The notes under the pieces are model-generated. The model was not told the origin of the DNA. It worked only from the letters and a program-made list of their open reading frames with translations, and did not search any database. From a virus, in IMG/VR virus record IMGVR_UViG_3300037882_005071, positions 1 to 47,030 of that record: DNA of 47,030 nt; one strand, given 5' to 3'. The position numbers and the translations under genes are program-made. Positions 13,061 to 37,376 of the stretch are shown piece after piece; positions within the stretch are counted from its first letter, which is position 1, and each line of letters starts with the position of its first letter.

Positions 13061-14329
13061 CTAGCTTACCGTAAGAGAGAATTTAGCGAACGAATCAGTA
13101 AATATTGCTCTAGCGTCTCGAAGCACGTGATATGTAGTCTGTCTGTTTAGTGATTTACCATTGTCAAGAATGTACTCTTTAAGCTCGCCTGTAGTTACTG
13201 CCAAATAGTGGCTAAGATCGCCAACTAAAACTGAGGTTGCATTTGAGACTGTTGGAATAGTTGACTCAGGTACTACAATAACCCTTACGTCATCAACCAT
13301 TTTCTTTTGAGAATCGATTGAATCGCCATAAGCTTTGTTGATCACTCTGAGTTTCTTGAATTCACCCCATGCTCGTTCATTCATGACCATGATTTTTTTG
13401 ACTACATTTCTTGATCCGACTAGGGAACATGCATCAACAGATGTTAGGTAAGCGTTGCCGTTGAATGCAACTGAAGTTGCAACAGTAAGCATTCCTGATT
13501 CATTTTGACCTGTACCTGGACCAGAGACTGCTTGGTATTCCATTCCAGAATTTAAAGCGATTGCTACAAATCCAAAGATCTGAGACAAAACTGCTGGTGA
13601 TAGCTTAGTTATTGTTCGGAAAGATTGCTCAAGCAGTAATGCGAAATCACGAGGAGTCCATTTTGTTTTCTTGATACCGTTAGTAGCGTCATCAAGGTCG
13701 CCTTGGATGTCAGGAACTGTACCAGTTTCGGTTAGGTAGCCTCCTAGTGAATATTTGTTATAGAATGGCATTTCGTAGTCACCATACGGGATAGTGATTT
13801 TGGAAATCTCTGGAAGAATTTGGCCGATGTTTTCAGCTCTATACATGATCGCTTGAGATACTGTTGTATCTACTGTGTTAGCAACACCTGGGTTTGCGGT
13901 AGAAACTACTGCAGCACGGAATTGCTCACTTGCTTTGCGGTATGCTTTGAATTCCTTAGCCCCTGCTCGGGCTGCTGTGACTGAGTAGTCAACTTGGCAT
14001 CGAGGGTTGTCACCTTGTAATTGATTGTACTCTGCACGGAACTGATGATCAGTATACATGAGTGTATTGATTGCAGCTAAGTGATCACCTTCGCAGATTC
14101 TAAGAATACGGTTGTATTTTTCCAATGTGTCTTGGTTTTCTGCTGCAAGGTCCTTGGTAGCTTTTCGAGTGAAATCTACAAAAGTTTTACTCATTTCAAC
14201 TTGATAGTCTTCAAATCGAATCATATCAAGAGCTCTAAGCTCACTTTCTGTTATTTCCTTGTCTGTGATGTCAGCTTCGGTTACAAAGCGTAAATTTAAT
14301 TTTGGTAGGGTTTCTTTAGTTACGGACAT
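13061..14329 (-). CDS. HK97-fold major capsid protein
   Basis: A 422-residue protein. The first 130 residues are charged and helical (LEKYNRILRICEGDHLAAINTLMY), as expected for a scaffolding delta domain removed by the prohead protease. After this come the HK97 features: the E-loop region YNKYSLGGYLTETGTVPDIQG, the P-domain helix SPAVLSQIFGFVAIALNSGMEYQAV, and a C-terminal A domain with IMVMNERAWGEFKKLR...VIVVPES...VLVGDLSHYLAV. The gene follows the prohead protease and precedes the connectors, the usual order. The call is secure. Confidence 0.92.
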   Translation of the reverse strand: MSVTKETLPKLNLRFVTEADITDKEITESELRALDMIRFEDYQVEMSKTFVDFTRKATKDLAAENQDTLEKYNRILRICEGDHLAAINTLMYTDHQFRAEYNQLQGDNPRCQVDYSVTAARAGAKEFKAYRKASEQFRAAVVSTANPGVANTVDTTVSQAIMYRAENIGQILPEISKITIPYGDYEMPFYNKYSLGGYLTETGTVPDIQGDLDDATNGIKKTKWTPRDFALLLEQSFRTITKLSPAVLSQIFGFVAIALNSGMEYQAVSGPGTGQNESGMLTVATSVAFNGNAYLTSVDACSLVGSRNVVKKIMVMNERAWGEFKKLRVINKAYGDSIDSQKKMVDDVRVIVVPESTIPTVSNATSVLVGDLSHYLAVTTGELKEYILDNGKSLNRQTTYHVLRDARAIFTDSFAKFSLTVS

Positions 14330-14341
14330 TTTTTGTTATTA

Positions 14342-15634
14342 TTAGAATTTTTTATTTTTAATTTTGTGATTTATTCGGTGAAATTCTTTTTCGATTTCAT
14401 CCTCTTCATCATTGACTTGGTCAGCTGCACCCTCACCTTTTTGAGAGATAGGATCAACGGATCGAGTTTTTGGATCGTCTGGTTTGTTCTCTGGTGAATT
14501 TAGGAGTTTGGTTTTGACTTCCAAGTCTTTTTCAAGTTGTGCAATCCTAAGATTTGCTATGTCGAGGTCGTTTGGTTCATCTTCACTGTCTGGTGCTGAT
14601 CGGTTTGTTGTAGTAGATTTTTGTGCAATAAGGAAAACAAGGAGATCTCCCATTTCAGCGTAAACCCATTCAACACCATCTTCTATCTCCCAAGACACTT
14701 TTGAGCCATCTACTGTATAGGTAGCATTGTCAGTTGTAAGAATAGTGACGGTCTCGGTATCAGCCCCGTCTGCATTCTGTTCTTTGACTGTCTTGGTCAC
14801 GACGCCAAGCATCCCATCAGATTGACGCTTCACGCATGCACTAGCATAAGCTCGTTTGCCTGCATTCTTTGCCTCAATATTTTCGATTTCTGGAACCTGC
14901 AATGTTACTAGTGAAGTCTCATCAAGCACAAGCTCGGTATCCCCTACTCGGACCGTGTAGACTGACTGGTCATTGATAGTTTCCACCTTATCGATTTTGA
15001 TTTCTTGGATAATTCGAACTGTATCCTCAGCTTTGTATTTTGACATTTTTTGATTTTCAGTTTCTGTGTTTATATGTTTTGATCTCACATTCAAGAAATA
15101 ACTTGAATCCTGCCCTGGCTTTGTTTTAAGAAGTGAGAAAAAGTTAAGTCTCCATTTTGGGAATTCAACTCGGATTAGGTCACCTTTACCGTTTTTATAT
15201 TCCACTATTTCTAGTGGAGTAAAATCTACGGAACCCCATCGGACTTGACCTCTGTCGACGTCATCCCAAAGGCTTGGGATATCCTCTTTTGGGAGAGATT
15301 GATTTTCCCTTGTATATTCTTTGGCATTTTTTGGCACCCTTACGTCTACGCAAAGTGCTTGGACTTCTACCTCCTCACCACCAGCAAGACGCATTTTTAT
15401 AGTCTCGATCTTGTCATTCTCCATCGTTGCCTCGGTCGCAATGCGGTTATGCATGAAATCAACCGGTGTAGAGGCAATAGGAGATACACACCCAGTTGGG
15501 TGTATTACAGAGTCGTACGAGTCAGTGATGTCAGTTACCAGGGCAACCCTAATGACTTTGTCACCTCGGTCCTCTCGGACGTTAACCACTCTTATATTGA
15601 CAATTGTATCGTCGTATTTTTGGTTTTCTGCCAT
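14342..15634 (-). CDS. Prohead protease with C-terminal scaffold-like extension
   Basis: A 430-residue protein. Residues about 10-180 are the serine-protease core: PVDFMHNR supplies the catalytic His, WGSVDFTPLEI the catalytic Ser with its following strand, and WRLNFFSLL..KPG the last conserved strand. The rest (about 190-430) is mixed, ending in an acidic/helical tail with LRIAQLEKDLEVKTKLLNS that looks like scaffold. Fusion of protease and scaffold is known in several phages. The protease cleaves the capsid N terminus during maturation. The start codon follows an A-rich leader with no Shine-Dalgarno, 40 bases after the promoter at 15681-15709. Confidence 0.85.
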   Translation of the reverse strand: MAENQKYDDTIVNIRVVNVREDRGDKVIRVALVTDITDSYDSVIHPTGCVSPIASTPVDFMHNRIATEATMENDKIETIKMRLAGGEEVEVQALCVDVRVPKNAKEYTRENQSLPKEDIPSLWDDVDRGQVRWGSVDFTPLEIVEYKNGKGDLIRVEFPKWRLNFFSLLKTKPGQDSSYFLNVRSKHINTETENQKMSKYKAEDTVRIIQEIKIDKVETINDQSVYTVRVGDTELVLDETSLVTLQVPEIENIEAKNAGKRAYASACVKRQSDGMLGVVTKTVKEQNADGADTETVTILTTDNATYTVDGSKVSWEIEDGVEWVYAEMGDLLVFLIAQKSTTTNRSAPDSEDEPNDLDIANLRIAQLEKDLEVKTKLLNSPENKPDDPKTRSVDPISQKGEGAADQVNDEEDEIEKEFHRINHKIKNKKF

Positions 15635-16152: not shown

Positions 16153-16536
16153 ATGTATATTTTCTTTACTTTCTTGACCTTACTTTATTACTCACTCAAC
16201 CTGTTTGAGCAAAAAAAAGACTTCAATAGAATAAGGAAAGCCTTTGACGATTTGAACAATAGTGACGCAACAAAAAATAAGGAAGAGCACACACAAAACC
16301 TAAAAAATGTAATATACCTTGTCGGACCACTGCGAATAATACTCTCAGTTATCACCCTACTCTGGACCCTATACACAATCGGAACACCCCTCGCAACCAT
16401 CTCCTTTTTCCTACTTGGATTAATGGCGCCACAAGCAGTATTCAAAGACCTAAAAAGGTCATTTTTATTCGACAAAATTGTCGGCATTCTAGGATTCCTG
16501 GTAGTTGCCTGGGTTTTCTATATTCTCCAGAACTAA
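16153..16536 (+). CDS. Small membrane protein, candidate moron
   Basis: A 127-residue protein on the opposite strand to about 32 kb of neighbouring virion genes. Hydrophobic segments lie near residues 2-17 (IFFTFLTLLYYSLNLF), 55-72, 77-96 and 107-124; a charged loop (KKDFNRIRKAFDDLNNSDATKNKEEH) follows the first. Own promoter, convergent overlap of 4 bases with the portal gene and reversed strand are the marks of a moron, a gene added to a phage to help the host or block rivals. Superinfection exclusion is a common role of such proteins but is a guess here. Confidence 0.75.
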   Translation: MYIFFTFLTLLYYSLNLFEQKKDFNRIRKAFDDLNNSDATKNKEEHTQNLKNVIYLVGPLRIILSVITLLWTLYTIGTPLATISFFLLGLMAPQAVFKDLKRSFLFDKIVGILGFLVVAWVFYILQN

Positions 16537-19397
16537 TCCGGCTTTTTCACACTGTCTGAATACCTAAGATTACACCTACAATTAACTGCATCGTGCGGAC
16601 CCTGCTCACCACTTGCCTTGAATGAGTCAGCGATTGGTATCCACCCTTCCTCCCGATCATCTCTGTGACGATCTCGCACGCGGTCATCATTGACCGTCAC
16701 TCTTTTTTTCCATTTGTACCCATTTGAGGTGTACAGTTGATACCGAGTTACTTCGATTGCCTGAGCAGACTCCGTTTTGGCTATCCTCAATGCTCGCCAT
16801 TCAGCCCTTTCTGGGGTCAATACTTGCATTTCTTTGACCGCTTCTGCAATACCTAGTCCTGCATCTAGGCTTCGTTTTAGGATCGTATTAACTTCACTGG
16901 ACAATTCAGCATCAAGACCCTGGTACCCATCATACGGTCTACTGGACCAAAACTTGTCCATGATAGCCCGTTGATCTTCATCGAGACTGTCCCAACCCTT
17001 CAATAGCACCTGGGATTTGGTGTCGAACAATTCCACGAGTTCGGGTGGGTACTCGTATTCATACTCTGTCGCTCTGCTGTAACTTCGCTTTTTGTGTGTT
17101 GCTTCGAACTCAACCATCCCTACCTTGGCAAATTTCATCAATTGGGCTTTCATCGTGTTGACTGGAAGTCCAGAACTGGTGATTGACGGGAGGTCCTTTT
17201 GGACGTTTTTGATCGCCTCTTCTAAGGTGTCGTACTTGGCTAGTTTCTTGGTGTAGAAGTTGAGCTGGTCCGTCGTTGCATTCCTTATAATGCTCTCAAA
17301 TTTTTTAGCGTTTTTCCCATCGATAGCTTTGTCGAGGAAGGCTCTTGTAGATTCATCTGTTTTGGTAAAATCCATAACCGTTTCACTGTCACTTGACCCG
17401 TCTGGTGAGAATACAATTTTTTGGATCCGGAAACTCTGCTTTGGTAGATCGATATTTTCTAGGTATTTATCCCCTTCACCTTTTTTAAGATAAGCAAGGG
17501 TGACGTGTGGTTTATAGTCCGGGTGATTATTTTGGTATGGAAGATCTCGGAGTATCGAGTTGGCTTCTAGGATATTGTCTGTAGGTTTACATTCGATCAC
17601 TAGTACCTCGTATTCTTTACCCTCAGGTTTGAAGACGGTGAGGTGGTCTAAAAATATTTCTGTATCGTCAAAAGTCCCATCCAATTTTTCTTGGATGATC
17701 TGTGTAGTGACTGTTTTTTCTAGTCCATACAACAAGGTTATATGTTGGTCGGTTACCTTTCCTGAAGCATATGATTCATTTGTTGTATATGTATCGGTGT
17801 ATGCTATCTCGGTGAGTAGACTTGCAAACTCAGACGGGTCAAGCATGGCCATGACACACCCGCTTGGGGCGACATTTTGAACTGCCCTAATCACCCCCCT
17901 ACTCTTTTTTTTTTCTACATTGACAGCTGAAGCATCTTTGGTATTATCCACTACATTTTCTGGACCTGACTTTCCAACTTCCTGATTTCCTGACTTGTCA
18001 GGAGGTGTAGAAAGTGTTGGCTCCCCTACCTTTATAATCTCGTTTTTCTCGAGGTCTAGCTCATACCCAGTACCGACCAGTGCAGCGATTATCTCGGACT
18101 GCGACTTAGTTCGATTAGTCATCAGTTCATAAGATTGTAAATCCTCAGCATCTGGATCAACCCCAAATATAAATGGATTTTTCTCTTTGTCATAGTTGCT
18201 GAAAAATATAGGCATCACCCAGTTCATCACCCAGTCCGCTATGTATTTCTGCTCAGGCTCGACGACCAGAGATTGGAAGTTATCAGACTCCACTTCAGCG
18301 TTTGAATACTTACTGTCCTTTGTGTTGATAATGCCTTTTGACATTCTAAATGCATATCCCATCTCTTCATCACAGACCTGTAGGAGTGGGATTGTCTCCA
18401 TTGATTTATTATCTCGGCCGACCTTAGTCACCGTCACTGGGACCTTAGTCATGATAGCTTTGTTAGCATTTCCAGGCCCTGTCAGTTCGTCTGCAATAAT
18501 TGACTTGGTAATCTCCGCTTGGTCCCTAAAAAACTTGATTGGATCAGTTGAAAATTCTTTACTGAAATTTCCTGCGACACTACCTCCAACCTTATTATTT
18601 TGGGTCGAAAACGCAGTTGCCAATTTGGCCAGACCATCGTAGTCCAAAGACATGATCGTCGGGTCCTGCAGTCCGTTCTGAAAACTTGACAGGGTCATCC
18701 CTGCTATGGTTTTTTTGAGTATGTACCAGAATACAGCTTTTTTAGCTGGGTTGGATGAGAACCTGAAATCGCCTCGTTGAGAGTATCTCCCATGAAATAT
18801 ATAATCAGTCTCAGAATTGAAACTGTAGATTGGCCGTTGGGTAAAAGAGTCTATAATCTCGTACCCGGTCACCTTTCTGTTTTTATTATCACCGTACACA
18901 GCGACTCTCGAGAAACCCTCTGCCAAGAACGGCTCAACACGCACTTCCAGATCCCTTCCAGCTTTAACCGTATGGCTCAGGAAGTTCCCTCCACCATCAG
19001 CCCAGCGGGCTGCTATTACGGAAGCTATGAGATCATCAATTTTGATTGATTCAAGTTTGTTGCTGTAAGCCCTAGCAAGTCCTACGGACCCACCGAATCT
19101 CCATCCATTTTTAGTAATCACAGAGACAAGTTGGTCATAGAGTGCCGAGATATATGAGTCCCGTTCCATCAGTTCGTATAGGTCCTTGGAGGATACAGCT
19201 TGGTCCGTTAGTCCGATTATGTTTCCAATTCCAGAGGTGGTGTAGAAGGGTTGCATATCAAAGAAGTGAGACTGGCCTGCAGTTGCCTGTTTAGTGTCCT
19301 GGATGAGGTCATTGAGGCCTGCCCGGATGTTCTGGTTGATCTCTCTGTTATTATTATCTCTGTTTATCCAGTTTTTTACTGTGTTGATTCCAAGCAT
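16533..19397 (-). CDS. Portal protein fused to a 2H phosphoesterase and a MuF-type minor head protein
   Basis: A 954-residue protein with three parts in one frame. Residues 1-460 are a portal: LYELMERDSYISALYDQLVSV at the start, conserved KAVFWYILKKTIAGM, and the NWVMPIFFS/Y motif near 391. Residues about 512-670 are a 2H phosphoesterase (LigT/2'-5' RNA ligase-like) with both catalytic motifs, H-I-T at 552-554 in DQHITLLYG and H-V-T at 631-633 in YKPHVTLAYLKKG. Residues about 830-950 are a Mu gpF-like domain (RIAKTESAQAIEVTRYQLY, DDRVRDRHRD, GPHDAVNCRCNLRY). Portal-MuF fusions are known; the inserted esterase is unusual. Because portals number twelve per virion, the enzyme would be in the particle. 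Confidence 0.88.
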   Translation of the reverse strand: MLGINTVKNWINRDNNNREINQNIRAGLNDLIQDTKQATAGQSHFFDMQPFYTTSGIGNIIGLTDQAVSSKDLYELMERDSYISALYDQLVSVITKNGWRFGGSVGLARAYSNKLESIKIDDLIASVIAARWADGGGNFLSHTVKAGRDLEVRVEPFLAEGFSRVAVYGDNKNRKVTGYEIIDSFTQRPIYSFNSETDYIFHGRYSQRGDFRFSSNPAKKAVFWYILKKTIAGMTLSSFQNGLQDPTIMSLDYDGLAKLATAFSTQNNKVGGSVAGNFSKEFSTDPIKFFRDQAEITKSIIADELTGPGNANKAIMTKVPVTVTKVGRDNKSMETIPLLQVCDEEMGYAFRMSKGIINTKDSKYSNAEVESDNFQSLVVEPEQKYIADWVMNWVMPIFFSNYDKEKNPFIFGVDPDAEDLQSYELMTNRTKSQSEIIAALVGTGYELDLEKNEIIKVGEPTLSTPPDKSGNQEVGKSGPENVVDNTKDASAVNVEKKKSRGVIRAVQNVAPSGCVMAMLDPSEFASLLTEIAYTDTYTTNESYASGKVTDQHITLLYGLEKTVTTQIIQEKLDGTFDDTEIFLDHLTVFKPEGKEYEVLVIECKPTDNILEANSILRDLPYQNNHPDYKPHVTLAYLKKGEGDKYLENIDLPKQSFRIQKIVFSPDGSSDSETVMDFTKTDESTRAFLDKAIDGKNAKKFESIIRNATTDQLNFYTKKLAKYDTLEEAIKNVQKDLPSITSSGLPVNTMKAQLMKFAKVGMVEFEATHKKRSYSRATEYEYEYPPELVELFDTKSQVLLKGWDSLDEDQRAIMDKFWSSRPYDGYQGLDAELSSEVNTILKRSLDAGLGIAEAVKEMQVLTPERAEWRALRIAKTESAQAIEVTRYQLYTSNGYKWKKRVTVNDDRVRDRHRDDREEGWIPIADSFKASGEQGPHDAVNCRCNLRYSDSVKKPD

Positions 19398-19410: not shown

Positions 19411-21588
19411 TTATATTCTTATTCTTAATTCCCCTGTTGCTGTTTTATATATATCTCCCACTGCAAGACCGCCTGAAATTGCGGAGGCGTTGTCTGGGTG
19501 GGTTGGGACTGTAATAATAGGGTTAGTTTTGCTCGCCACTTCGCCTGTCAAAGCCAATCTATCAACCATAATATTTGACGGTTTTGTAGATGTAAATGTA
19601 CTTCCACCAGTGATAATAACGGTAGGTGCTGATGTGTAACCTCCACCTGCATTTGTAATCGTAAATCCTGTGATACCTCCAGCTGAAACTGTAACATTAG
19701 CAGTAGCACCAAAACCCCCACCGCCTACAATTTCACAAGATGCTGATAAATATCCTGACCCTGCTGTACCTAGAGTTATACTTGAAATACTAGCTCCAAG
19801 ATTAGCGGTTGCAGTAGCACCACTTCCTCCACCTCCAGTAAATGAAATTGTAGGAGCAGATATATATCCTGAGCCTGTTGCTGTAACAGTTATCTGAGTA
19901 ACTAGCCCAGCGACTACACTTGCATATGCACTCGCACCACTTCCTTCACCTCCAGTAAATACTACGTTAGGCGATGAGGTGTAACCAGAGCCTCCTGATA
20001 TAACGGTAACACTATTTAGGCTGTTATTAGCACTTAATACCGCTGTACCTGTACCACCTGAACCTGCTGGTGAATAGTATTGCGTAATATTACTTACTTC
20101 TAATACATTGTTGCCAAATATTACGGTCTGATTAGGTATTGCTGTGTTTCTATATTGATTATCAATGTAAACATCGTAGAGCGTTGTTTTAACAGTCTGG
20201 TCATCATTTGAAACATTGCCATCAAAATAAATAAATTTTCCTGCCAATCCATAATTGTATTTAGTGGAAGAAGTGCCAATTTGACCTGAGTTTTTGACGT
20301 TATTATCTCTTAAAGTAAGGTAATCTGCTTGAACATCAAGACCTGCCCAATGCGTATTTTCAAAAGTGCAACCTTCAATTAAAAGATCAATACAGGATAA
20401 CTGCGTAGATCCATTACGAGCTGTAAATGTATCTGTGTTGATTGCATTACTGTTACAATTTATGAGAATACAACCTTTAATTTTTGATCCTTTCAATCTT
20501 ATGTTTGAATTTGGTGCATCGGCACCCAGCGACTGTTCAGCACTACTTTGTCTATACCCTCTAAATATGATTCCACAAAGTGAGTCAAAAACAGGATCTC
20601 CTTGAAATACACAAGTATCGAATATTGTATTATCCCCTTGTACAAGACATCTAGCTCTCGTAAAAGTACAATTCACAAACCTAGTATCACCGTGAGCATT
20701 TGATGCTTGTGTGCTATCCTCAAATGTGCAATTAGTACAAACAACTGCATATGAGCCATAGTTAAGTAAATTGAAGCCTTGTGTTTTAGATCCAAAGAAA
20801 CAATCGATAAATCTTACATTATAAGTTTGAGCCAGTAGCACAGATTCGTACAACGCAGTTCCACCAGAAAAATCACATCGAATAAGTGTGAAGTTTTTAG
20901 AAGAAAATACAAAACTGACATTATTAGAAAGACCTAAAAACAACATGTTGTAAGCTCCAACTCCTTGATTGATAAAACTACATTCAATTAGTGTCGTGTT
21001 GGTAGTATGACACTTAACTCCATAGCTATTGCCACCAAGATTATTCATGTCAAAAGTTATCCCTTCTATGATGTTGTTATCTGGGTGGTCAGGACTTGCT
21101 CCATTTCCATCGCCGAGAGAAAGGATTGACCCAACTGCTGAAAGTCGGAAAATAGTTTTACCTTTTCCTTGCCCTTTAATTTTTATGTTCGAATATGCTG
21201 TGGTCGTAAGGTTAAGATTGAGAAGTGTAAATGTACCTTTTTGACATTCAACAGTACCACCTCCAAGACTTGAAACATAATCACACGCAGCTTTTACTGC
21301 TAGGGTATGAGACGCATAATTAACAGTGTTATAATTCGCATTTGTATCGTTAATACCGACTGTTACTGAGATTTTGCTTTGCTTCCCTGTCAATCCAGCT
21401 GTCAAATCACTATCAAGAGCATATTGAGCGTGAGGATCTGTAGCGTTCGTATGTGCTGTAATTAACTCCGCAGCAACTCCAGTATTTTCTTTACTCGTTG
21501 GGTCAAAATAATTGACAACCTTGACCTCCACCCTATTTTTGGGTGTTGTTGCTTGTACCACATTACGAGTTACTGAGGCGGTTGGCAT
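19411..21588 (-). CDS. Tail spike-like protein: beta-helix plus Gly-rich repeats
   Basis: A 725-residue protein. Residues 1-80 carry a coiled/adaptor region with AELITAHTNATDPHAQY. Residues about 110-480 form a right-handed beta-helix of the pectate lyase type (AVKAACDYVSSLGGGTVECQ start cap, many N-x-x-F/I/V-x-x-C rungs). Residues about 520-690 contain four imperfect copies of a unit like GSGYTSAPTVSFTGG..GSGATATA. The C terminus resembles a short clamp (ISGGLAVGDIYKTATGELRI). Tail spikes of this kind bind or cleave capsule or lipopolysaccharide. Being between terminase and portal, away from the tail genes, is uncommon for a spike. Confidence 0.78.
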   Translation of the reverse strand: MPTASVTRNVVQATTPKNRVEVKVVNYFDPTSKENTGVAAELITAHTNATDPHAQYALDSDLTAGLTGKQSKISVTVGINDTNANYNTVNYASHTLAVKAACDYVSSLGGGTVECQKGTFTLLNLNLTTTAYSNIKIKGQGKGKTIFRLSAVGSILSLGDGNGASPDHPDNNIIEGITFDMNNLGGNSYGVKCHTTNTTLIECSFINQGVGAYNMLFLGLSNNVSFVFSSKNFTLIRCDFSGGTALYESVLLAQTYNVRFIDCFFGSKTQGFNLLNYGSYAVVCTNCTFEDSTQASNAHGDTRFVNCTFTRARCLVQGDNTIFDTCVFQGDPVFDSLCGIIFRGYRQSSAEQSLGADAPNSNIRLKGSKIKGCILINCNSNAINTDTFTARNGSTQLSCIDLLIEGCTFENTHWAGLDVQADYLTLRDNNVKNSGQIGTSSTKYNYGLAGKFIYFDGNVSNDDQTVKTTLYDVYIDNQYRNTAIPNQTVIFGNNVLEVSNITQYYSPAGSGGTGTAVLSANNSLNSVTVISGGSGYTSSPNVVFTGGEGSGASAYASVVAGLVTQITVTATGSGYISAPTISFTGGGGSGATATANLGASISSITLGTAGSGYLSASCEIVGGGGFGATANVTVSAGGITGFTITNAGGGYTSAPTVIITGGSTFTSTKPSNIMVDRLALTGEVASKTNPIITVPTHPDNASAISGGLAVGDIYKTATGELRIRI
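19540..20020. repeat. Gly/Ser-rich coding repeats of the spike
   Basis: Four in-frame copies of about 38-40 codons around G-[SG]-G-Y-x-S-[AS]-P-x-[VI]-x-[FI]-x-G-G. Units differ in sequence, so they are old rather than a recent expansion. Confidence 0.6.
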
Positions 21589-21590
21589 AG

Positions 21591-21965
21591 TTAAGGTGTA
21601 TAATTTGGTCTATCGTTTTTAACAGTTTTTTTGAATATGATCCCGTCACCTGAATTAAGTTCTAACGGTGTCCACCTGTCGTTTGATGAGGCTACTGGTG
21701 ATTGAGTAAGAATACCCATTATATATAAACGACCGTATTCAATCGTATCATAGAGTGCGTCGTCACTATCAATGTTAAAAGTAATAGTTGATTGATTAAC
21801 AACTGTCGTTGCTTGTACGTCTTCATAGACTTTGGCACTATCAGTCATGTCGTCATCATAGTCTTTCTTAATTGTCAACCACACTTTTGTACCCAAAGCT
21901 AAACCGCTTGGCAGTCCGTCTATGTCTATACTATCATCTGTTTTTCGGTATATTATTAGTGGCAT
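21591..21965 (-). CDS. Small structural protein, unassigned (124 aa)
   Basis: A 124-residue protein rich in strands (MPLIIYRKTDDSIDIDGLPS, SSNDRWTPLELNSGDGIIFKK) that lies between the spike and LamG genes. It resembles small baseplate or fibre-linker domains in the form of strand-turn-strand with a C-terminal WTPLELNSGD motif, but I cannot name a family. Spacing to both neighbours is 1-2 bases, so it is expressed with them. Confidence 0.65.
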   Translation of the reverse strand: MPLIIYRKTDDSIDIDGLPSGLALGTKVWLTIKKDYDDDMTDSAKVYEDVQATTVVNQSTITFNIDSDDALYDTIEYGRLYIMGILTQSPVASSNDRWTPLELNSGDGIIFKKTVKNDRPNYTP

Positions 21966-21966
21966 A

Positions 21967-23040
21967 TTAGTATCCGTATTGAGATTTTTGAGAATTGTAG
22001 ATATTCTGAATCTGTGTGTCGCTTAGAATAGAAGACTTAATAGTGATGAGGTTTTGTTTTTCACTCGCATACTCACTTGCGTTATTTTGTGCAAATATAA
22101 GATTGCCGAAGGCGCACACTTGTGTCGTTGTAGCGTCTGCAATTTTTATACCGTTCAAAAAAACTTTATAAGGAAATGGTGACGCTGTCTGATCAAATGT
22201 CACTGCTACATGATTCCATTGGTTGAGCGTGAGAACCTCACCCACTGCCGAAGTGTAAATATTAGCCTGAAATGACTTGTCGATCGCTATACGCCCTGCA
22301 TTTGTGACCTTTACCACAAAGCCTGAACCAGTGAGCGTCCCGATCAAAGAGTTTGCAACATTTACCGTCTTTTTAGACCAGATCAAGGCTGTTATTTGAG
22401 TCGGTCGAGTATATGTAGTCGATATAAATTGAGTAGCTGATTGGGTATAGTTAAGCACAGGCCAAGATGTGTCGATAGCAAGCATTGATCCTGCCACACC
22501 GTTTGTGTAAGTACCGTCTTCAGCACTGCCAAGGGTACCAAGGTTGAGTATTTTGACAGTCGTTGCATCTACTCTTGCGCGATAAGCAAGTAATGTACTC
22601 CCAACATTTAGCTGAGCACTGTTTACTGTCCCTGTCACAGTAAAGAGTATCGTGCCAGGGGTCGTGACACTGATAGTCTGTGTCTGACCTACCGTAATCG
22701 TACCGAGCCCAGTTGCAACTGCGGTTGACACAGCTGACACGATTGACCCTGCACCACTCAAAAATCCAAATGTGAAAGTACCAACTGGTAAAGTTACAGT
22801 TTGAGTTGATAATGTCGCTGTTGCTGTGAATAGATTATAATTCACGCTAAGACTAGCATCGTATAGGAGCTCAGGTACTCCCCCATTGGACTTATAAACC
22901 TTAAGCAGCTTATTCAACTTATTCGTGCTACTGGACCCAAACAAATACCCATACCCACTTACCTGCGAGATACGGGACCGTACGGTCCTAGTCAAAGCCA
23001 GGAATACACTCCCAAGCTGTCCAAACATCACTGGAAACAT
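21967..23040 (-). CDS. LamG-type surface protein
   Basis: A 357-residue protein. The N-terminal half is beta-rich with no clear family. Residues about 205-345 are a LamG/concanavalin-like domain: ITALIWSKK, NQWNHVAVTFDQTASPF..VFLNGIKIADATT and LSDTQIQNIYNSQKSQYGY, the standard end of phage LamG domains. It is a second LamG protein in this genome, separate from the tail-tip one at 1742-3532, and would bind sugars or proteins at the particle surface. Where on the virion it attaches is not known. Confidence 0.7.
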   Translation of the reverse strand: MFPVMFGQLGSVFLALTRTVRSRISQVSGYGYLFGSSSTNKLNKLLKVYKSNGGVPELLYDASLSVNYNLFTATATLSTQTVTLPVGTFTFGFLSGAGSIVSAVSTAVATGLGTITVGQTQTISVTTPGTILFTVTGTVNSAQLNVGSTLLAYRARVDATTVKILNLGTLGSAEDGTYTNGVAGSMLAIDTSWPVLNYTQSATQFISTTYTRPTQITALIWSKKTVNVANSLIGTLTGSGFVVKVTNAGRIAIDKSFQANIYTSAVGEVLTLNQWNHVAVTFDQTASPFPYKVFLNGIKIADATTTQVCAFGNLIFAQNNASEYASEKQNLITIKSSILSDTQIQNIYNSQKSQYGY

Positions 23041-23041
23041 A

Positions 23042-23536
23042 CTAAATCGAAGCTTGGATTGAAAATCGAGTCCCTGCAGTTGCTGAAACGACTACAACAT
23101 CTTTAATCCTATGACAAACAAAAGTTGCTGATGAAGCCCCTGCATCGACGCGAGTGGACCTGTAGGTCGTGCTGATCCAGCTTGTGTATGGCTGTGAGAC
23201 TATTGTACTTCCTGCAGCGACTGTGACAGTTGCGCTAGTGGCATTCACAATGGTTGCAATGGTAAAAATTTGATCTGCTACCTGGATGAGATCCCCCACT
23301 GCAAGCTCGGTCGTGAATAATGTACCGACACCGGTCAATGCTGTTAGCCCAGTCGTAATTGAGACGAATCCCTGGTATGGTCTAGCCACACCGTAAAAAA
23401 GATTTCCAGAGTTGTCTGCATCAGACGAGACTGTTACATATCGTTTGCCAGTGAAGTTTTGGACTGTTGTTGGTAATTCACCAAATGCTCTTTGAGCTAC
23501 ATTTGAGGTAGTAATTGTAGATTGATTTTGTATCAT
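23042..23536 (-). CDS. Beta-rich virion protein, unassigned (164 aa)
   Basis: A 164-residue protein with a repeated strand pattern (FVSITTGLTALTGVGTLFTTEL then AVGDLIQVADQIFTIATIVN then SATVTVAAGSTI) that matches domains often found in phage tail fibres and spike shafts (the TGVGTxFTTEL..GDxI motif). It is likely a fibre or head fibre component. No catalytic motif is visible. Confidence 0.65.
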   Translation of the reverse strand: MIQNQSTITTSNVAQRAFGELPTTVQNFTGKRYVTVSSDADNSGNLFYGVARPYQGFVSITTGLTALTGVGTLFTTELAVGDLIQVADQIFTIATIVNATSATVTVAAGSTIVSQPYTSWISTTYRSTRVDAGASSATFVCHRIKDVVVVSATAGTRFSIQASI

Positions 23537-23555
23537 ATTTATTTTTGTTTTTGTT

Positions 23556-24287
23556 TTAATTCATTTTAGCATTCTCGGTCACGATATAGCTTGGTGTCGT
23601 CTTATTCACACACAATATACAAACCAGATTGACCGCATTAATTGCTGTGTCCCAATTGTCACTGTACAAGATTGATTCTGCAGGGAGAATTGGTGCTGCA
23701 ATGTTAGCCACCGCATTAGTCGTCTGCAGGAGAACCATCTGTCCAGCCACCGGGTTGAGTACAGTGATCGTCTGTTGACTACTGATTGTCTTGGTAAATA
23801 TAAAACTGGAGTTATAGTCTAGAACCGATCCACTTCCTAGTGGTGACAATACCTTTGCATCTGTGTATGAATATTGCGGACCCGGGACTGCATTAGTCGC
23901 CAGTTCCTGCTCGATGTAAATATTGTACTGGCCATATGTCTCTGTTACCAGCCCGTCATTCGTCTGGATCTCCAAGACATAATTTGTCTTAATTGCCAGT
24001 GCTGCAGACTGGGCTGTGCTGATTGTAATACTCCCCTGTCCACTTGCACTTGCCACGACGGTCTGGGTTAGGTTCCCTGTGTCACCGAAGGCTGGAAGTA
24101 CGTTGGTCACTGCAGTCAGGTCCTGGGTGATATCCCCTGGTTTGATTGTTACTGTCACTGTGTACGATGCGGATGGTGTGAGATTATCAAGCACCAGAAC
24201 CACACCGTCACCCTTCCAGCTTGCTAGTTCTGGTAGGGTTGAATCAGATCTTATCTGTTTGGCCAAGGTGATAGTTCTTGCTGCCAT
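23556..24287 (-). CDS. Beta-sandwich virion protein, unassigned (243 aa)
   Basis: A 243-residue protein starting MAARTITLAKQIRSDS. The first 130 residues read like an Ig/BppU-like sandwich (GVVLVLDNLTPSASYTVTVTIKPGDI ... NYVLEIQTNDGLVTETYGQYNIYIE). It is the first gene after its promoter (24296-24324) whose -10 box is eight bases from the ATG. Likely a base or attachment protein for the surface cluster that follows. Not recognised with certainty. Confidence 0.7.
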   Translation of the reverse strand: MAARTITLAKQIRSDSTLPELASWKGDGVVLVLDNLTPSASYTVTVTIKPGDITQDLTAVTNVLPAFGDTGNLTQTVVASASGQGSITISTAQSAALAIKTNYVLEIQTNDGLVTETYGQYNIYIEQELATNAVPGPQYSYTDAKVLSPLGSGSVLDYNSSFIFTKTISSQQTITVLNPVAGQMVLLQTTNAVANIAAPILPAESILYSDNWDTAINAVNLVCILCVNKTTPSYIVTENAKMN

Positions 24288-24328: not shown

Positions 24329-25789
24329 TTAGAACGATGCTTTTTTGTGTTTGACATTTGGGTCAACTTCGATAAACGTGAAGTCGGTATTTTTTATAGC
24401 TCCAGAAAGGGTGTCAACTTGGTCGTCAAATCTTCCTACCGGGTATGTCAATAGCTCTTGAATAAAGTCATCAGCCCACGGTGCATCTGCCAAGACGAAT
24501 ACCCTACCCGCTTCTATTTTAGGGGTACAGGCTTCAGCGCGAGCACGCTTGGATAGCTCATTACTCACTGGGTCAACTCTCATATTGAACTCGGTAGAGT
24601 CTAGGAGTAGATCGATAATGTCGTGACCGCTGGCCTTATTCTCAACGAAATGCATTGACTCATCACTGGAACCCATAGCCCGACACCAGTCGGTGTATCG
24701 TTTCTGCCACTTGGTTATTTTCAGCCTCACGACAAACATACCCCAAATGTACATGTTCCCTCGGTGAACGGACCAGCACATTGTAGCTGAATGATCTCCA
24801 CCCTCCACTCCAAATGCCGAGTCAGTATAGAAGTTACGTACGAGATCAGCTGGTACCTCACTCTCCTTAAATCGTTTGAACCAAGCACGCTTGAATACCT
24901 CACCATCAGCCGGTGCTGGAGTCTGCATGTACTGCCCTGCATAATCTCGAGATCCTAACTCTTCTTTTTTTTGTTTGAGGACCGAGGTGGGGAATCGTTC
25001 AGTCCAGAATGTACCCTCTTTATAATATTCCTTGAGTTTTGCAGGGTTTGGTTGGTTATTCTCACCTATCTCAGCTGGAATGACTATCGGTCTGAAATTC
25101 AGACCCCGCCTGTAAATCTCACCACTCACATCCTCTTCATGGACCCTCTGCTGGACTACAATCCTAACACCTGTTTTTAGATTTTTAAGCCTAGATGGGA
25201 TGACCTGAAAAAATTGTTTTAGTACGGACTTCCTGTCAGCTTCACTAGTTGCCGTCTTTGGGTTATTCGGATCGTCACTCACAATGATGTCAAAGTGCTT
25301 ACCGGTTCGCACCCCTGCCCTGCGTTCACCACCCTGTTTGTTTGAGAATACCGACTGAGTGTTTTGGTCCTCCCTCATAGTGAATGAGTCACCAAATAAA
25401 TCTCGATACCACTCTGATGATACCAGAAGCCTGGCTTGCATGGTGTGGTCCAGCGAGAGCTCTTTATTGAAGCTGTCATTTCCAATTTTGACCCATGGGG
25501 CATGTATCCAAATCCAAGCGGTGAGGCACACTGAGAATATTTTGGACTTCGAGGAACCAGGTGGGACGTTGACGACTAAGTCGTACAGTTTGTCCTGTTT
25601 GTTGATCACCCTAGTGACCACCTCTTGGATCTCATCACATAACACTTTGATATGCCAGTTAAAAGACCATTCGGTCTCTGGCTCTAATACTTGTACCGCG
25701 GCACAGAAAAAGTCGTAGTAACTATCAGTTAGTTTTTGTTTGAGTCTTTTTTGTTTTTCTGCCTGTGCCAGTTCTAGAAGGGTTGGCAT
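24329..25789 (-). CDS. Terminase large subunit
   Basis: A 486-residue packaging motor. The ATPase part shows an adapted Walker A, VVNVPPGSSKSKIFSV, near residues 69-84, and FDIIVSDDPNNPKTA as Walker B with the following acidic residue. The RNase H-fold nuclease follows, with DSAFGVEGGDHSAT as its first acidic strand and RFDDQVDTLSGAI as its last. It overlaps the start of its upstream neighbour's stop. It cuts the DNA concatemer and powers packaging through the portal. The call is secure; the Walker A lacks the usual GK(S/T) in exact form but is common in this subgroup. Confidence 0.92.
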   Translation of the reverse strand: MPTLLELAQAEKQKRLKQKLTDSYYDFFCAAVQVLEPETEWSFNWHIKVLCDEIQEVVTRVINKQDKLYDLVVNVPPGSSKSKIFSVCLTAWIWIHAPWVKIGNDSFNKELSLDHTMQARLLVSSEWYRDLFGDSFTMREDQNTQSVFSNKQGGERRAGVRTGKHFDIIVSDDPNNPKTATSEADRKSVLKQFFQVIPSRLKNLKTGVRIVVQQRVHEEDVSGEIYRRGLNFRPIVIPAEIGENNQPNPAKLKEYYKEGTFWTERFPTSVLKQKKEELGSRDYAGQYMQTPAPADGEVFKRAWFKRFKESEVPADLVRNFYTDSAFGVEGGDHSATMCWSVHRGNMYIWGMFVVRLKITKWQKRYTDWCRAMGSSDESMHFVENKASGHDIIDLLLDSTEFNMRVDPVSNELSKRARAEACTPKIEAGRVFVLADAPWADDFIQELLTYPVGRFDDQVDTLSGAIKNTDFTFIEVDPNVKHKKASF

Positions 25790-26334: not shown

Positions 26335-27216
26335 CTAAAAATCTCCATCAGCAACCTGCAAACAGGTCAACCCAAGGGACCTCCACATCTGGACCACTTG
26401 ATCACGATCATCCAAGACAAATTCCACGTAGTATTTATCCCGGATGTGCTGGTCGAAAAGTTCCCGTTTGACTACAGAGTCTTTGCAGGTGTCACCTTGC
26501 GGTCTCATGAGTAAAATCGGATCTCTATACATAGTATGATTAGCATCAATCCAATCTAGTGTTGATTGTCTGCATACCTCATCTCTACCAGAGATAAAAA
26601 TGATTTCAACAAGGTCTAGACTATCAATTAACTCTATTATTGGTTGATTTGGCTTATCCTCCCCTACCTTATCCCATTCATAAGGACCTCTCTCATCCAT
26701 CAATGCAATCGTCCCATCGACATCACAGAGGACTACGTGGGGTAGTTTTGGATCCTGCTGAATGGTAGTCTTGGTGAGTGTTGGCTTGATATACTGGCGC
26801 CACATTTTTTTGATCTCCTTTTCACCTACTGAGTTTGGCCGCTGGAGGTCCCGTTTGATGCACTCCTCTAGCGGTACGTCGGTGAAGTCTTTGGTTTCAA
26901 CGTAGAAGATGTCTTTATCCTCTGGCTCCCTATATTTGCTTATCTCTGTGCAGATGTCCATTGCCTTCCTAAAATGAATTGGATTGAAGTTGGTATCATG
27001 CCAGATCACGTCCAGCCCCTGCTGGAGATACATCTCGGTCAAGGTATCCCTGGTCTGTAGTACCAATTTTTCTCGCTTTTTAGTCGGTGCGAACATTTTT
27101 CGCAGATCGTCTTTGGTGATGGCCACTATCTGCCCTTTTGACTGTTCGATTTCTTCTCGAGCCCAGGTACTTTTGCCACTCCCAGGGAGACCTTTGGTTA
27201 GTATTATTTTAGGCAT
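26335..27216 (-). CDS. pseT: Polynucleotide kinase / 3'-phosphatase (T4 PseT-like)
   Basis: Start ATG 27216 is preferred over an upstream GTG. The 293-residue protein has two parts. The N-terminal kinase has a P-loop GLPGSGKS near residue 9, a KDDLRKMF and a downstream DTNFNP. The C-terminal acylphosphatase-type half has DVDGTIALM with the DxDGT nucleophile, then IIFISGRDEVCRQSTLDWI and VLDDRDQVVQMW, in the same order as T4 Pnkp. T4 Pnkp heals cut tRNA ends by adding a 5' phosphate and removing a 2',3' cyclic phosphate so that a ligase can seal them. The gene overlaps the RNA ligase by 8 bases, which fits one repair operon. Confidence 0.92.
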   Translation of the reverse strand: MPKIILTKGLPGSGKSTWAREEIEQSKGQIVAITKDDLRKMFAPTKKREKLVLQTRDTLTEMYLQQGLDVIWHDTNFNPIHFRKAMDICTEISKYREPEDKDIFYVETKDFTDVPLEECIKRDLQRPNSVGEKEIKKMWRQYIKPTLTKTTIQQDPKLPHVVLCDVDGTIALMDERGPYEWDKVGEDKPNQPIIELIDSLDLVEIIFISGRDEVCRQSTLDWIDANHTMYRDPILLMRPQGDTCKDSVVKRELFDQHIRDKYYVEFVLDDRDQVVQMWRSLGLTCLQVADGDF

Positions 27217-28120
27217 ACGCGACACTCATTTCATTATTGAGAATATCTTTATACACCTGTGTCAACTTCGTCAAAGCTATCCTTTTAAGTTTCCCAAAAT
27301 CTACAGACTGGACCTTCCCTTGTATCTCCCAAATTTCCTCAGTGATTAAATCATGGTACGCACTGGCCGTTACTCTAGATGTATGCTTGAGTCCTATTGG
27401 CTCATCAATCTCTGGCTGGATCTTATTCATAATCTTTTGGACCCTCGCCACGGTGGCGTACTTATTGACAATGTACATCTCCCAGTAGCTATCGGAGTGT
27501 TTGTTGTTGCCACCGAAGATAATACTGTTTTTCTCTTTAAAGCTTTCTATGACGATCTTGGCATAGCACAGGTCGCCAAATTTATTCCGGAAGTCCAGGT
27601 TTTTGATCACCACCCCTTCACCGTTGGGTCCGAGAGAGGACCTGCCGACGTACTCTTGGATTTGGTCCTGGGTTGGGTTGGTTAGGTGTGCAAAAAGTCC
27701 TGGGGTTTCGATTTGGTAGTAATCTGCTAGGCCTATTACTTGCTGTGGCGTTAGATACGCACCACTCTCATCAACTATGTCGAATAGGTAGAATTGTTTG
27801 TATGCCATTTCATTGTAGGATATTGTGTGGCGGACTAGCCATTCACCGTATAGCCTGTACCCTGGGTGGTCTTTGAGTAGGTGTCTTATCCCTTTATGGT
27901 TCAACACATAATCCCGAAACCCATTAAACGACTCATCATCTCGTAGTTCCCTATTTCTGGATGCCAATTTAATTACTGAGAAGCCTTCGCTGGAGTCATC
28001 CCAGTAGATACTCACATTAGCTCCATCAATTTTTTCTTGTATCACGCAGCTCCCTACTAGGATACCCTCAGTCTCTTCCTTACCCAGCCTATGGATCTTA
28101 GGATATTTTATAAATTCCAT
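27209..28120 (-). CDS. RNA ligase (Rnl2-family)
   Basis: A 303-residue ATP-dependent ligase with all nucleotidyltransferase motifs: motif I EKIDGAN with the lysine that receives AMP (near residue 33), motif III YRLYGEWLV, IIIa QFYLFDIVDE, IV GEGVVIKN and V YAKIVIE. The C-terminal helical part fits Rnl2 of T4 rather than Rnl1. Rnl2-type ligases seal nicked or broken RNA and, with the neighbouring kinase-phosphatase, could repair tRNAs cut by host anticodon nucleases. The promoter 28172-28200 lies about 50 bases before the ATG. Confidence 0.9.
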   Translation of the reverse strand: MEFIKYPKIHRLGKEETEGILVGSCVIQEKIDGANVSIYWDDSSEGFSVIKLASRNRELRDDESFNGFRDYVLNHKGIRHLLKDHPGYRLYGEWLVRHTISYNEMAYKQFYLFDIVDESGAYLTPQQVIGLADYYQIETPGLFAHLTNPTQDQIQEYVGRSSLGPNGEGVVIKNLDFRNKFGDLCYAKIVIESFKEKNSIIFGGNNKHSDSYWEMYIVNKYATVARVQKIMNKIQPEIDEPIGLKHTSRVTASAYHDLITEEIWEIQGKVQSVDFGKLKRIALTKLTQVYKDILNNEMSVAYA

Positions 28121-28911: not shown

Positions 28912-30217
28912 CTAATTCATCTTAACTGCTGTGTTGCCAGTGTAGTCCTCCCAACGTGTCAAGATTACATCAACATATTTCGGGTCGAGCTCACAGATTC
29001 TAGCTTCCCTACCTAAGTTTTCACAGGCTATCAAAGTTGACCCAGAACCTCCAAACAAGTCCAGTACAACATCACCCTCTTTGCTGGAGTTTTTAATTGC
29101 ATACTCGATCAAGGCAGTTGGTTTTTGGGTTGGATGGACATAACTGTTCACATTGTCCCTTGCAATACTCCAGATGGACCGCTGGCCAGAGGCTTCAGCT
29201 TTCCGCTCAGATTCTAATATCTTAAGCAGCTGCTCATCTGTTTTATGTAAATCCCAGACTGTTGTATTGGTTCGGTTACCATAAAACTCTGGTTTATCTC
29301 CCTTAATGTAACAATAAAAAAATGGTTCATGCTTAGATCGATAGTCTCCCATGCCCATTCCACCTGCTGGTTTATTCCAGATTAGTTGGTTTTTAATTTC
29401 ATATCCAGCACGCTCTAAGGAGGATTGGAATTGGCTGGCAGTCTTGTCACTATGAAAAATATACATACCTGCACCCCCCCCCCACAAAGTTTTTTAGATT
29501 TGAAAATACAGCATCAAGCAACGTATCAAATTCAGAATCACTCATCTTATCATTCAAGATCCCATTTTGGGTATTAGCTCCCTTCCCTTTATAATCCACA
29601 TTGTATGGTGGGTCGGTAAATACCATATGTGCTTTAGACCCAGCCATCAGGACCTCTACTGTCTTGAAGTCGGTTGAGTCTCCACAGATAAGGATATGCT
29701 CACCAAGTTGGTAAAGGTCTCCTATTTTGGCTCGTGCTGGTGGATTCATTGGTACTTGATCCGGGTCGGTCTTTTTTTTCTGGCGTTTGAGAATTTGGTC
29801 TATGTTAATGTCTGGAATATTTATTGTAGACAACAATGATTGGACGTCTAGATCTACGCTAAAATCAAGCCAGGATTTCTCGGTTACCGATCCATATTTA
29901 GAACTGATTTTAAGGACGATCGCCTTGGCTTCCTGTTTGGTTTTAGCTTCAATCTCAACGACTGGTAGATCGTCAATAGTGTACCCTTCACCTTCCAAGG
30001 ATGTCAATGCTAGGTTTCTACCGGTCCCGTCGATGACGTACTGGTGTTCGTGCCAAATAAATATTGGAGCTATGAAACCGTCGTTGACTATCGAGTTTTT
30101 GAGTTTTTTTACATCTCGATTTCCGTCTTTTAAATCATTAAATTCCCAGGTCTTTAGTTCGGACCAAGGGATAGTTTTTGTATTTTTTATTTTGTTGATT
30201 ATCTTTTTATCTTTCAT
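28912..30217 (-). CDS. ParB-domain DNA methyltransferase split by a G10 frameshift
   Basis: Two frames belong to one gene. Residues 1-250 (30217-29474) hold a ParB/Srx-like domain (LKDGNRDVKKLKNSI, VIDGTGRNLALTSL) and the methylase motif TDPPYNVDY. After the G10 tract the -1 frame continues with GAGMYIFHSDKTASQFQSSL, and a FGGSGST motif I in VLDLFGGSGSTLIACENL, ending at 28912. In the given frame the protein stops with GGGCRYVYFS at 29450. With nine Gs the frames would join, with ten they do not. Domain order (DPPY before FxGxG) is that of beta-class N4/N6 adenine or cytosine methylases. The methylase could protect phage DNA or act in regulation. Confidence 0.85.
29474..29483. repeat. C10 (coding G10) homopolymer in the methyltransferase
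   Basis: Ten Cs on the plus strand form the coding-strand G10. The frame needs 9 or 12 to be open. Such tracts slip readily during replication and are also a common site of base-calling error. Confidence 0.9.
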
Positions 30218-33083: not shown

Positions 33084-33157
33084 TGGTACGACTTGGTGGA
33101 ATTGAACCACCCCATTCAGCCCCAACGGCCGACATGCTAACACTACACTAAAGTCGC
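33084..33157 (-). tRNA. tRNA gene, anticodon possibly TTG (Gln), with G at position 33
   Basis: Acceptor GCGACTT pairs with AAGTCGT (one G-T), with encoded ACCA; T-arm GGTGG-TTCAATT-CCACC; D-arm GTGT...GCAT. The anticodon stem TCGGC/GCTGA leaves loop CGTTGGG, so the anticodon would be TTG, but base 33 is G instead of the invariant T. If the loop is drawn one base off, the anticodon could be TGG (Pro). The clover leaf otherwise looks sound. Confidence 0.7.
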
Positions 33158-33158
33158 T

Positions 33159-33232
33159 TGGTGGCGGAACCTGGACTCGAACCAGGACTGAGAGGTTATG
33201 AGCCTCTTGAGCTGCCGTTACTCAATTCCGCG
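33159..33232 (-). tRNA. tRNA-Met (CAT), initiator-like
   Basis: Acceptor CGCGGAA pairs with TTCCGCC from position 2 onward but not at 1-72 (C-C), a hallmark of bacterial initiator tRNA. The anticodon arm AGAGG-CTCATAA-CCTCT gives CAT in a normal loop, and T-arm CCTGG-TTCGAGT-CCAGG is standard. CCA is encoded. The three G-C pairs of a classic initiator anticodon stem are only partly present (two). It is the first RNA after the promoter at 33259-33287. Confidence 0.85.
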
Positions 33233-37094: not shown

Positions 37095-37376
37095 TTATAA
37101 TAAAAAGTCGTCAAGTGGGATGTTATTTTGGCTAATATATAGGCTCAAAGCTTCTTCAATTATCATGTATTCTTTGGTCTTTTTATTTCGCAATTTCATG
37201 ATTCCGGTTATCCTGTCAACAAGCTCTACAGTCTGGGGTGTTAATTTGAACGTTTTTGGGACCCTCACTTCGACCTGCTTTGACTGTTGCAGGGCAGGGG
37301 ATGGAGCTGGCAGACTAATTGCAGGCTTCCGGTTTGCGAAGTAATCGTCCAGGGCGTTTCCTATTTTTTTATGCAT
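37095..37376 (-). CDS. Ribbon-helix-helix partner of ParA
   Basis: A 93-residue protein with a flexible Pro-rich start (ISLPAPSPALQQSKQ) and an RHH-type C-terminal part: a short strand VRVPKTFKL, then TPQTVELVDRITGIMK and a second helix EYMIIEEALSLYISQ. It overlaps the ParA gene by 16 bases, the usual setting of the centromere-binding partner of type Ib partition systems (ParG/ParR-like). It would bind a parS-type site, perhaps in the region at 38159-38718, and link it to ParA. Confidence 0.7.
   Translation of the reverse strand: MHKKIGNALDDYFANRKPAISLPAPSPALQQSKQVEVRVPKTFKLTPQTVELVDRITGIMKLRNKKTKEYMIIEEALSLYISQNNIPLDDFLL

What the first reader, a model, noticed from the sequence alone, without database searches (positions are those of the whole stretch)
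17388..17864. 2H phosphoesterase built into the portal protein
The portal-MuF fusion carries an inserted domain with both H-x-T motifs (HIT at 552-554, HVT at 631-633) of the 2H family. Members of this family include Acb1, which cuts cyclic nucleotides to block CBASS defence, and RNA-cyclic phosphodiesterases. Placing the enzyme in the portal would load about twelve copies in every particle, ready at entry. I know of portal-MuF fusions, but not this insertion as a common form.
Basis: partly seen in the sequence, partly recalled or inferred. Interest (0 to 1): 0.75.

Follow-up and report, generated by a model that had tools for sequence, protein, structure and literature searches.

The report
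2H phosphoesterase between portal and MuF
A phage portal protein really does carry an intact RNA- or nucleotide-cutting enzyme domain between its portal and MuF parts, but such fusions were described in 2017 and recur in many phages; the less usual point is that this phage also encodes an RNA kinase/phosphatase and an RNA ligase next door, so RNA repair is at least as likely a job as blocking the CBASS defence.

Summary
ORF 19397..16533 (-), 954 aa, is portal, then 2H domain, then MuF. Both catalytic motifs are there (H552-I-T554, H631-V-T633). Pfam PF13563 passes its cut-off on the excised domain, and AlphaFold2 gives a confident 2H fold (pLDDT 86). The domain lies between the portal and MuF parts, joined by linkers; it is not inserted in the portal fold.

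It is not novel as an architecture. Iyer et al. (PMC5512222, PMC9503650) reported 2H fused to portal or MuF. Here I found the same portal-2H-MuF order in two further viral contigs, and portal-2H in at least five more sequence types, one in a Rhodococcus genome. Both histidines are essentially invariant in 134 relatives. The tree requires at least five label changes, so fusion was repeated. In two cultured Arthrobacter phages a NUDIX domain occupies the same slot.

Function: Acb1 membership is not supported (below the Pfam cut-off; substrate-contact residues not recognisable). The window's 2H clade is mostly stand-alone phage proteins and tRNA-nucleotidyltransferase fusions. This phage also has overlapping RNA-ligase and Pnkp genes. 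I favour 2',3'-cyclic-phosphate RNA end healing (about 0.45) over degradation of nucleotide signals (about 0.3). Release from the portal at entry is unproven.

The parts
16533..19397 (-). portal-2H-MuF fusion gene, 954 aa
18018..19397 (-). portal domain, about residues 1-460 (Portal_Mu match at 338-450)
   Evidence: PF06074 E 2.7e-5, 24.1 bits against a cut-off of 23.9; phrog_2662 'portal protein' 3.1e-16 for the whole protein, two stretches
17370..17894 (-). 2H phosphoesterase domain, residues 502-676
   Evidence: PF13563, phrog_755; AlphaFold2 pLDDT 86; Foldseek to Usb1, CPDase, Acb1, LigT
17736..17744 (-). first HxT motif, H552-I-T554
17499..17507 (-). second HxT motif, H631-V-T633
16566..16895 (-). 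MuF domain, residues 835-944
   Evidence: PF04233 E 2.1e-9; phrog_2468 3.6e-16
27209..28120 (-). ATP-dependent RNA ligase (PF09414), overlapping the start of the Pnkp gene
   Evidence: E 5.4e-25, 88.9 bits
26335..27225 (-). T4-type polynucleotide kinase-phosphatase (HAD_PNKP + AAA_33)
   Evidence: phrog_505 8.4e-88; PF25109 1.3e-50; T4 Pnkp 1ltq E 2.9e-38
24329..25789 (-). terminase large subunit
   Evidence: phrog_38 8.2e-69
14342..15634 (-). possible prohead protease/scaffold (by eye: His and Ser motifs like S78; no profile or BLAST support)
   Evidence: inference; no phrog or informative Pfam hit, no phage tblastn hit
13061..14329 (-). major capsid protein
   Evidence: PF05065 E 3e-7

Best explanation
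The domain is a 2H phosphoesterase of a phage family, with its catalytic motifs intact, carried as a cargo module between the portal and MuF parts of one head protein, so that it is presumably built into the particle on the inside of the head. Its most likely chemistry is metal-independent opening of 2',3'-cyclic phosphate ends on RNA, made when host ribonucleases cut tRNA or other RNA. In this phage the opened ends could be finished by the phage's own Pnkp (5' kinase, end phosphatase) and sealed by its ATP-dependent RNA ligase. Shown: domain order, both motifs, predicted fold, conservation, presence of Pnkp and ligase genes. Inferred: activity, substrate, location in the virion, and whether it acts after delivery at entry or as newly made protein late in infection.
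For: 2H domain and motifs; confident 2H model, with Usb1 and plant cyclic phosphodiesterase among the top Foldseek matches; active-site residues invariant. The phage has a T4-type Pnkp and an RNA ligase in overlapping genes just upstream of terminase and two tRNA genes. The window 2H falls in a 63-row clade (SH-aLRT 99) with stand-alone phage 2H proteins and six tRNA-nucleotidyltransferase (CCA-adding) fusions; several stand-alone members lie near arrays of 5-25 tRNA genes, and in four records (L028, L047, L055, L057) an RNA ligase lies about 2-4 kb from the 2H gene. The structural delivery context recurs: portal, MuF-like minor head protein and prohead protease fusions.
Against: None of the other 16 viral records searched that have 2H fused to head proteins (or in the L069/L070 protein) has an RNA ligase of this family, though many are fragments; so most portal-2H proteins seem to work without one. 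Iyer et al. took the lack of ligase linkage as evidence against RNA repair. T4 Pnkp can itself remove 2',3'-cyclic phosphates (own knowledge), so a 2H step would be partly redundant. TIGR02258, the RNA cyclic phosphodiesterase equivalog, is far below cut-off. By profile search the best solved relative is an Acb1.
Confidence: 0.45

Rival explanations
1. The 2H domain degrades nucleotide immune signals (CBASS cyclic di/trinucleotides, 2'-5' linked or CRISPR-type oligonucleotides), working like Acb1 or poxvirus cGAMP phosphodiesterase.
For: Same fold; Acb1 structures are the best profile matches in the PDB (9q2g 4.3e-6) and are among the Foldseek hits (7t27 1.5e-5, target TM 0.64; poxvirus cGAMP PDE 3.6e-5). 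Carriage in the head would suit a fast counter to an immediate signal; this was proposed for the fusions in PMC9503650.
Against: PF23474 Acb1 below cut-off (19.1 and 23.9 against 27 bits). Acb1 contact residues Y12, F107, E141, W147 align with Q507, H625, S669, M675 (the C-terminal part is poorly aligned). The window has RNA repair genes.
Confidence: 0.3
2. It is a ribonuclease like Usb1/Mpn1, a 3' exonuclease that cuts host RNA (for example tRNA or CRISPR RNA) as an injected effector.
For: Top Foldseek match is human Usb1 (4h7w E 1.8e-6); Iyer et al. favoured this because PBECR RNases are fused to MuF and portal in the same way.
Against: Usb1 similarity is fold-level (11% identity). Stand-alone relatives are kept by phages that carry large tRNA arrays, and relatives are fused to a CCA-adding enzyme, which suits repair more than destruction.
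Confidence: 0.12
3. On timing rather than chemistry (not exclusive with the others): the domain acts in the infected cell late in infection, as newly made portal protein, and its place in the portal gene is only a way of co-expression; nothing is delivered at entry.
For: The ligase, Pnkp, terminase, portal and capsid genes are all on the same strand and look like one late block; a tethered domain would stay with the capsid after ejection (own knowledge of portals).
Against: The repeated fusion specifically to portal, MuF-like and prohead protease proteins is hard to explain by expression timing alone; stand-alone late genes would do.
Confidence: 0.3
4. The domain is a structural spacer whose enzyme activity no longer matters.
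For: The slot tolerates different modules (2H or NUDIX).
Against: HxT residues are invariant in 133-134 of 134 relatives.
Confidence: 0.05

Closest known systems
2H-portal and 2H-MuF fusions of Iyer et al. 2017 (PMC5512222) and 2022 (PMC9503650)
   Same: 2H domain fused to portal or MuF in a phage packaging module; same suggested purpose, delivery with the DNA
   Different: The passages read report no measured activity; they state that these 2H domains were never seen to associate with RNA ligases, whereas this phage encodes Pnkp and an RNA ligase
Portal-2H-MuF proteins in IMG/VR contigs L112 (891 aa) and L126 (1173 aa)
   Same: Same domain order with both HxT motifs
   Different: Their 2H belongs to another part of the tree (N-terminal SSTQxDLP instead of GCVM), so probably a separate fusion event
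Stand-alone phage 2H proteins (phrog_755; Maribacter Colly_1/Molly, Rhodococcus Weasels2, Microbacterium A3Wally), often annotated 'RNA ligase'
   Same: Nearest in sequence and fold (28-34% identity; BFVD E 7.2e-12, target TM 0.81)
   Different: Not fused; encoded among small genes, in Weasels2 with a tRNA and a tRNA-His guanylyltransferase gene
Portal-NUDIX-MuF of Arthrobacter phages Sonali and Mufasa8 (gp3)
   Same: Enzyme domain in the same slot between portal and MuF, in cultured phages
   Different: NUDIX instead of 2H
Acb1 (T4 57B family)
   Same: 2H fold, HxT/HxT tetrad
   Different: No YGL or KKGxGxKY motifs; substrate-contact residues differ
MuF polymorphic toxins (PMC5576092)
   Same: Enzyme carried with MuF
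   Different: There the toxin domain follows MuF (own knowledge of that family); here MuF is last

Membership tests
2H phosphoesterase superfamily | Two HxT/S motifs at proper spacing | tested here: met
   H552-I-T, H631-V-T, 79 residues apart; kept in 133-134 of 134 relatives
2H phosphoesterase superfamily | Profile match above curated cut-off | tested here: met
   PF13563 31.1 bits against 27 on the excised domain (26.3, just under, in the whole protein)
2H phosphoesterase superfamily | 2H fold | tested here: met
   AlphaFold2 pLDDT 86; 26 PDB matches at E <= 0.001, all from 2H-type entries
Acb1 anti-CBASS nuclease | Acb1 profile cut-off | tested here: not met
   PF23474 19.1 and 23.9 bits against 27
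Acb1 anti-CBASS nuclease | Nucleobase-stacking and adenine-reading residues Y12, W74, F107, E141, W147 | tested here: inconclusive
   Aligned to Q507, F589, H625, S669, M675; FBB1 Acb1 itself has F at 74; C-terminal alignment unsure
Acb1 anti-CBASS nuclease | Cleaves cyclic di/trinucleotides | not testable with these tools
   Needs an assay
RNA 2',3'-cyclic phosphodiesterase ThpR/LigT (TIGR02258 equivalog) | Equivalog profile cut-off | tested here: not met
   21.0 bits against 65.7
Portal/MuF-2H fusions (Iyer et al.) | 2H in one polypeptide with portal and/or MuF, in the packaging module | tested here: met
T4-type RNA repair system | Pnkp and ATP-dependent RNA ligase in the same genome | tested here: met
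T4-type RNA repair system | The 2H domain takes part in the repair | not testable with these tools
   Needs biochemistry; none of 16 other viral records with such fusions has the ligase
MuF polymorphic toxins | Enzyme domain C-terminal to MuF | tested here: not met
   MuF 835-944 is the last domain of 954 aa

The most novel reading that the evidence does not exclude
A virion-borne first step of RNA repair: the portal carries the end-healing 2H enzyme into the cell with the DNA, the phage then makes the kinase-phosphatase and ligase that finish the job, and the portal-MuF junction is a general cargo slot into which phages load different RNA- or nucleotide-processing enzymes (2H, NUDIX).
Probability: 0.2. 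Interest if true: 0.6.

Novelty: new member of a known kind. Interest (0 to 1): 0.36.

Why it matters
No published activity for a portal- or MuF-fused 2H domain turned up in the searches made here. The repeated loading of 2H or NUDIX enzymes into one slot between portal and MuF suggests that phages use the portal complex as a cargo carrier. A phage that combines the 2H with Pnkp and an RNA ligase goes against the published reason for dismissing RNA repair, and makes the choice between RNA repair and anti-signalling directly testable.

Tried and rejected
No relatives of the whole protein, the isolated 2H domain or the terminase were found in viral contigs with single-sequence queries; alignments were needed. 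Most very long ORFs with 2H (1000-4000 aa) looked at first like portal fusions, but the N-terminal parts of those scanned match DarB-like or other polyvalent proteins or nothing, not portals, and were not counted. L069 first looked like a PNK plus prohead protease fusion; Pfam shows zeta-type kinase, NUDIX, 2H and ADP-ribosyltransferase. Full-length AlphaFold2 failed (pLDDT 40) and was not used, so the place of 2H relative to the portal is unmodelled. A prohead protease that might release the domain (15634..14342) has only by-eye support. Chance co-occurrence of two HxT motifs is not negligible (1.5%), so the motifs alone were not relied on.

Full report
Observation. The ORF 19397..16533 on the - strand is 954 aa long. 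Residues 338-450 match Portal_Mu (E 2.7e-5, just above its cut-off), residues 551-662 the 2'-5' RNA ligase / 2H family PF13563, and residues 835-944 Phage_Mu_F (E 2.1e-9). PHROGs agree: portal protein phrog_2662 (3.1e-16), head morphogenesis phrog_2468, and phrog_755 'RNA ligase' for the middle part. The motifs are at the stated residues, HIT 552-554 and HVT 631-633, with a third HxT (HLT 585-587) between. Two HxT motifs 60-100 residues apart occur in 1.5% of shuffles, so the profile, alignment and fold evidence carries the claim.

Fold and active site. AlphaFold2 with 43 window and IMG/VR sequences gives a confident model (pLDDT 86, pTM 0.79). Foldseek finds known 2H proteins: Usb1 (1.8e-6), plant cyclic phosphodiesterase (3.5e-6), Acb1 (1.3e-5 and 1.5e-5), poxvirus cGAMP phosphodiesterase (about 3.6e-5), LigT (5.3e-4); among viral predictions the nearest are stand-alone phage '2'-5' RNA ligase' proteins (7.2e-12). 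In 134 distinct relatives H552 and T554 are kept in 133 (one gap) and H631 and T633 in all. The scan patterns included part of the second motif and, in the second scan, part of the first, so the invariance is partly favoured by the search; but the first scan constrained neither H552, T554 nor H631, and all its loci kept an HxT pair except one whose ORF is cut short (L018).

Architecture in other phages. Scans of viral and genome contigs followed by Pfam and PHROG scans gave: portal-2H-MuF in L112 (portal 54-397, 2H 500-591, MuF 811-884, the last below cut-off) and L126 (76-417, 482-597, 1043-1151); portal-2H in L085 (contig ends), L095, L098-L103, L110 and in a Rhodococcus aetherivorans genome (L090); 2H with a minor head protein (L144, L154); 2H with a prohead protease (L118, L152); 2H with a tRNA nucleotidyltransferase inside larger proteins (L039, L043, L058, L061, L062, L074); and 2H in giant polyvalent proteins. 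In the cultured Arthrobacter phages Sonali and Mufasa8 the slot between portal and MuF holds a NUDIX domain instead. The tree of 2H domains (quick method, two Acb1 sequences used as the root) puts the window domain in a 63-row clade (99) of mostly stand-alone phage proteins, apart from most other portal-2H domains; portal fusion needs at least five label changes on well-supported branches. The fusion has therefore arisen or been exchanged repeatedly.

Literature. Iyer et al. 2017 (PMC5512222) state that 2H domains are fused to MuF or portal domains and propose a role as RNases or against nucleotide signals, noting that they never saw these 2H domains associate with RNA ligases. Iyer et al. 2022 (PMC9503650) repeat the fusion and suggest delivery to counter nucleotide signalling. 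The architecture is therefore known, and its function predicted but, as far as these searches show, untested.

Context in this window. Overlapping genes 28120..27209 and 27225..26335, on the same strand as terminase, portal and capsid and just upstream of terminase, encode an ATP-dependent RNA ligase (PF09414, 88.9 bits) and a complete T4-type Pnkp (PF25109 1.3e-50, AAA_33; T4 Pnkp 1ltq E 2.9e-38). Two tRNA genes lie at 33084-33232. So this phage carries a kinase, an end phosphatase, a ligase and a 2H domain. In the other 16 viral records searched (head-protein 2H fusions or the L069/L070 fusion) PF09414 was not found, though many are fragments, so this combination appears particular to the window. 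Among larger records of the window's side of the 2H tree an RNA ligase over cut-off occurs in 10 of 31, against 2 of 19 in the mainly polyvalent set, but genome size confounds this; in four records the ligase is about 2-4 kb from the 2H gene (positions and the locus ranges). Several stand-alone members lie near tRNA arrays.

Acb1 question. The domain fails the Acb1 cut-off, and the residues that contact the cyclic nucleotide in Acb1 align with Q507, F589, H625, S669 and M675; the last two are in an unsure stretch. Yet Acb1 is the best solved match by profile, so an Acb1-like activity is not excluded: it is not shown to be a member, and it may still work like one.

Mechanism and delivery. I favour RNA end healing (0.45), then signal degradation (0.3). 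That the domain acts at entry is not shown. Portal proteins stay with the capsid (own knowledge), so delivery needs proteolytic release; a candidate protease (15634..14342) has only by-eye support. Action late in infection by newly made protein is a serious rival on timing. Since Pnkp can clear cyclic phosphates itself (own knowledge), a 2H step would have to add speed or reach.

Verdict. Observation confirmed, interpretation partly supported, novelty low as an architecture; moderate interest from the RNA repair genes and the exchangeable cargo slot.

Noticed in passing
26335-28120 (-): RNA ligase and T4-type Pnkp genes overlap by 17 bases just upstream of terminase, an RNA repair pair in the packaging-gene block of a 47-kb phage contig.
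   Followed up: yes
L179 1303-4287 and L180 1324-4323 (Arthrobacter phages Sonali and Mufasa8): Portal-NUDIX-MuF fusion: a different enzyme in the same slot between portal and MuF, in cultured phages.
   Followed up: partly
L043, L058, L061, L062, L039, L074: A tRNA nucleotidyltransferase (CCA-adding type) is fused to 2H in large phage proteins, one clade of six.
   Followed up: partly
L069 470-3751, L070: 1094-aa phage protein with zeta-type kinase, NUDIX, 2H and ADP-ribosyltransferase domains.
   Followed up: no
L143 record (G062) 65337-67296: RtcB and an ATP-dependent RNA ligase side by side in a record that also has a 2H polyvalent protein of at least 4173 aa.
   Followed up: no
19411-24287 (-): A run of tail-fibre-like or structural genes lies between terminase and portal, an unusual order for a packaging module.
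   Followed up: no
46251-46877 (-), 37361-38158 (-), 28912-29487 (-): Phage integrase domain, ParA-like ATPase and partial DNA methylase: hints of a temperate or plasmid-like life style.
   Followed up: no
33084-33232 (-): tRNA-Gln and tRNA-Met genes side by side.
   Followed up: no
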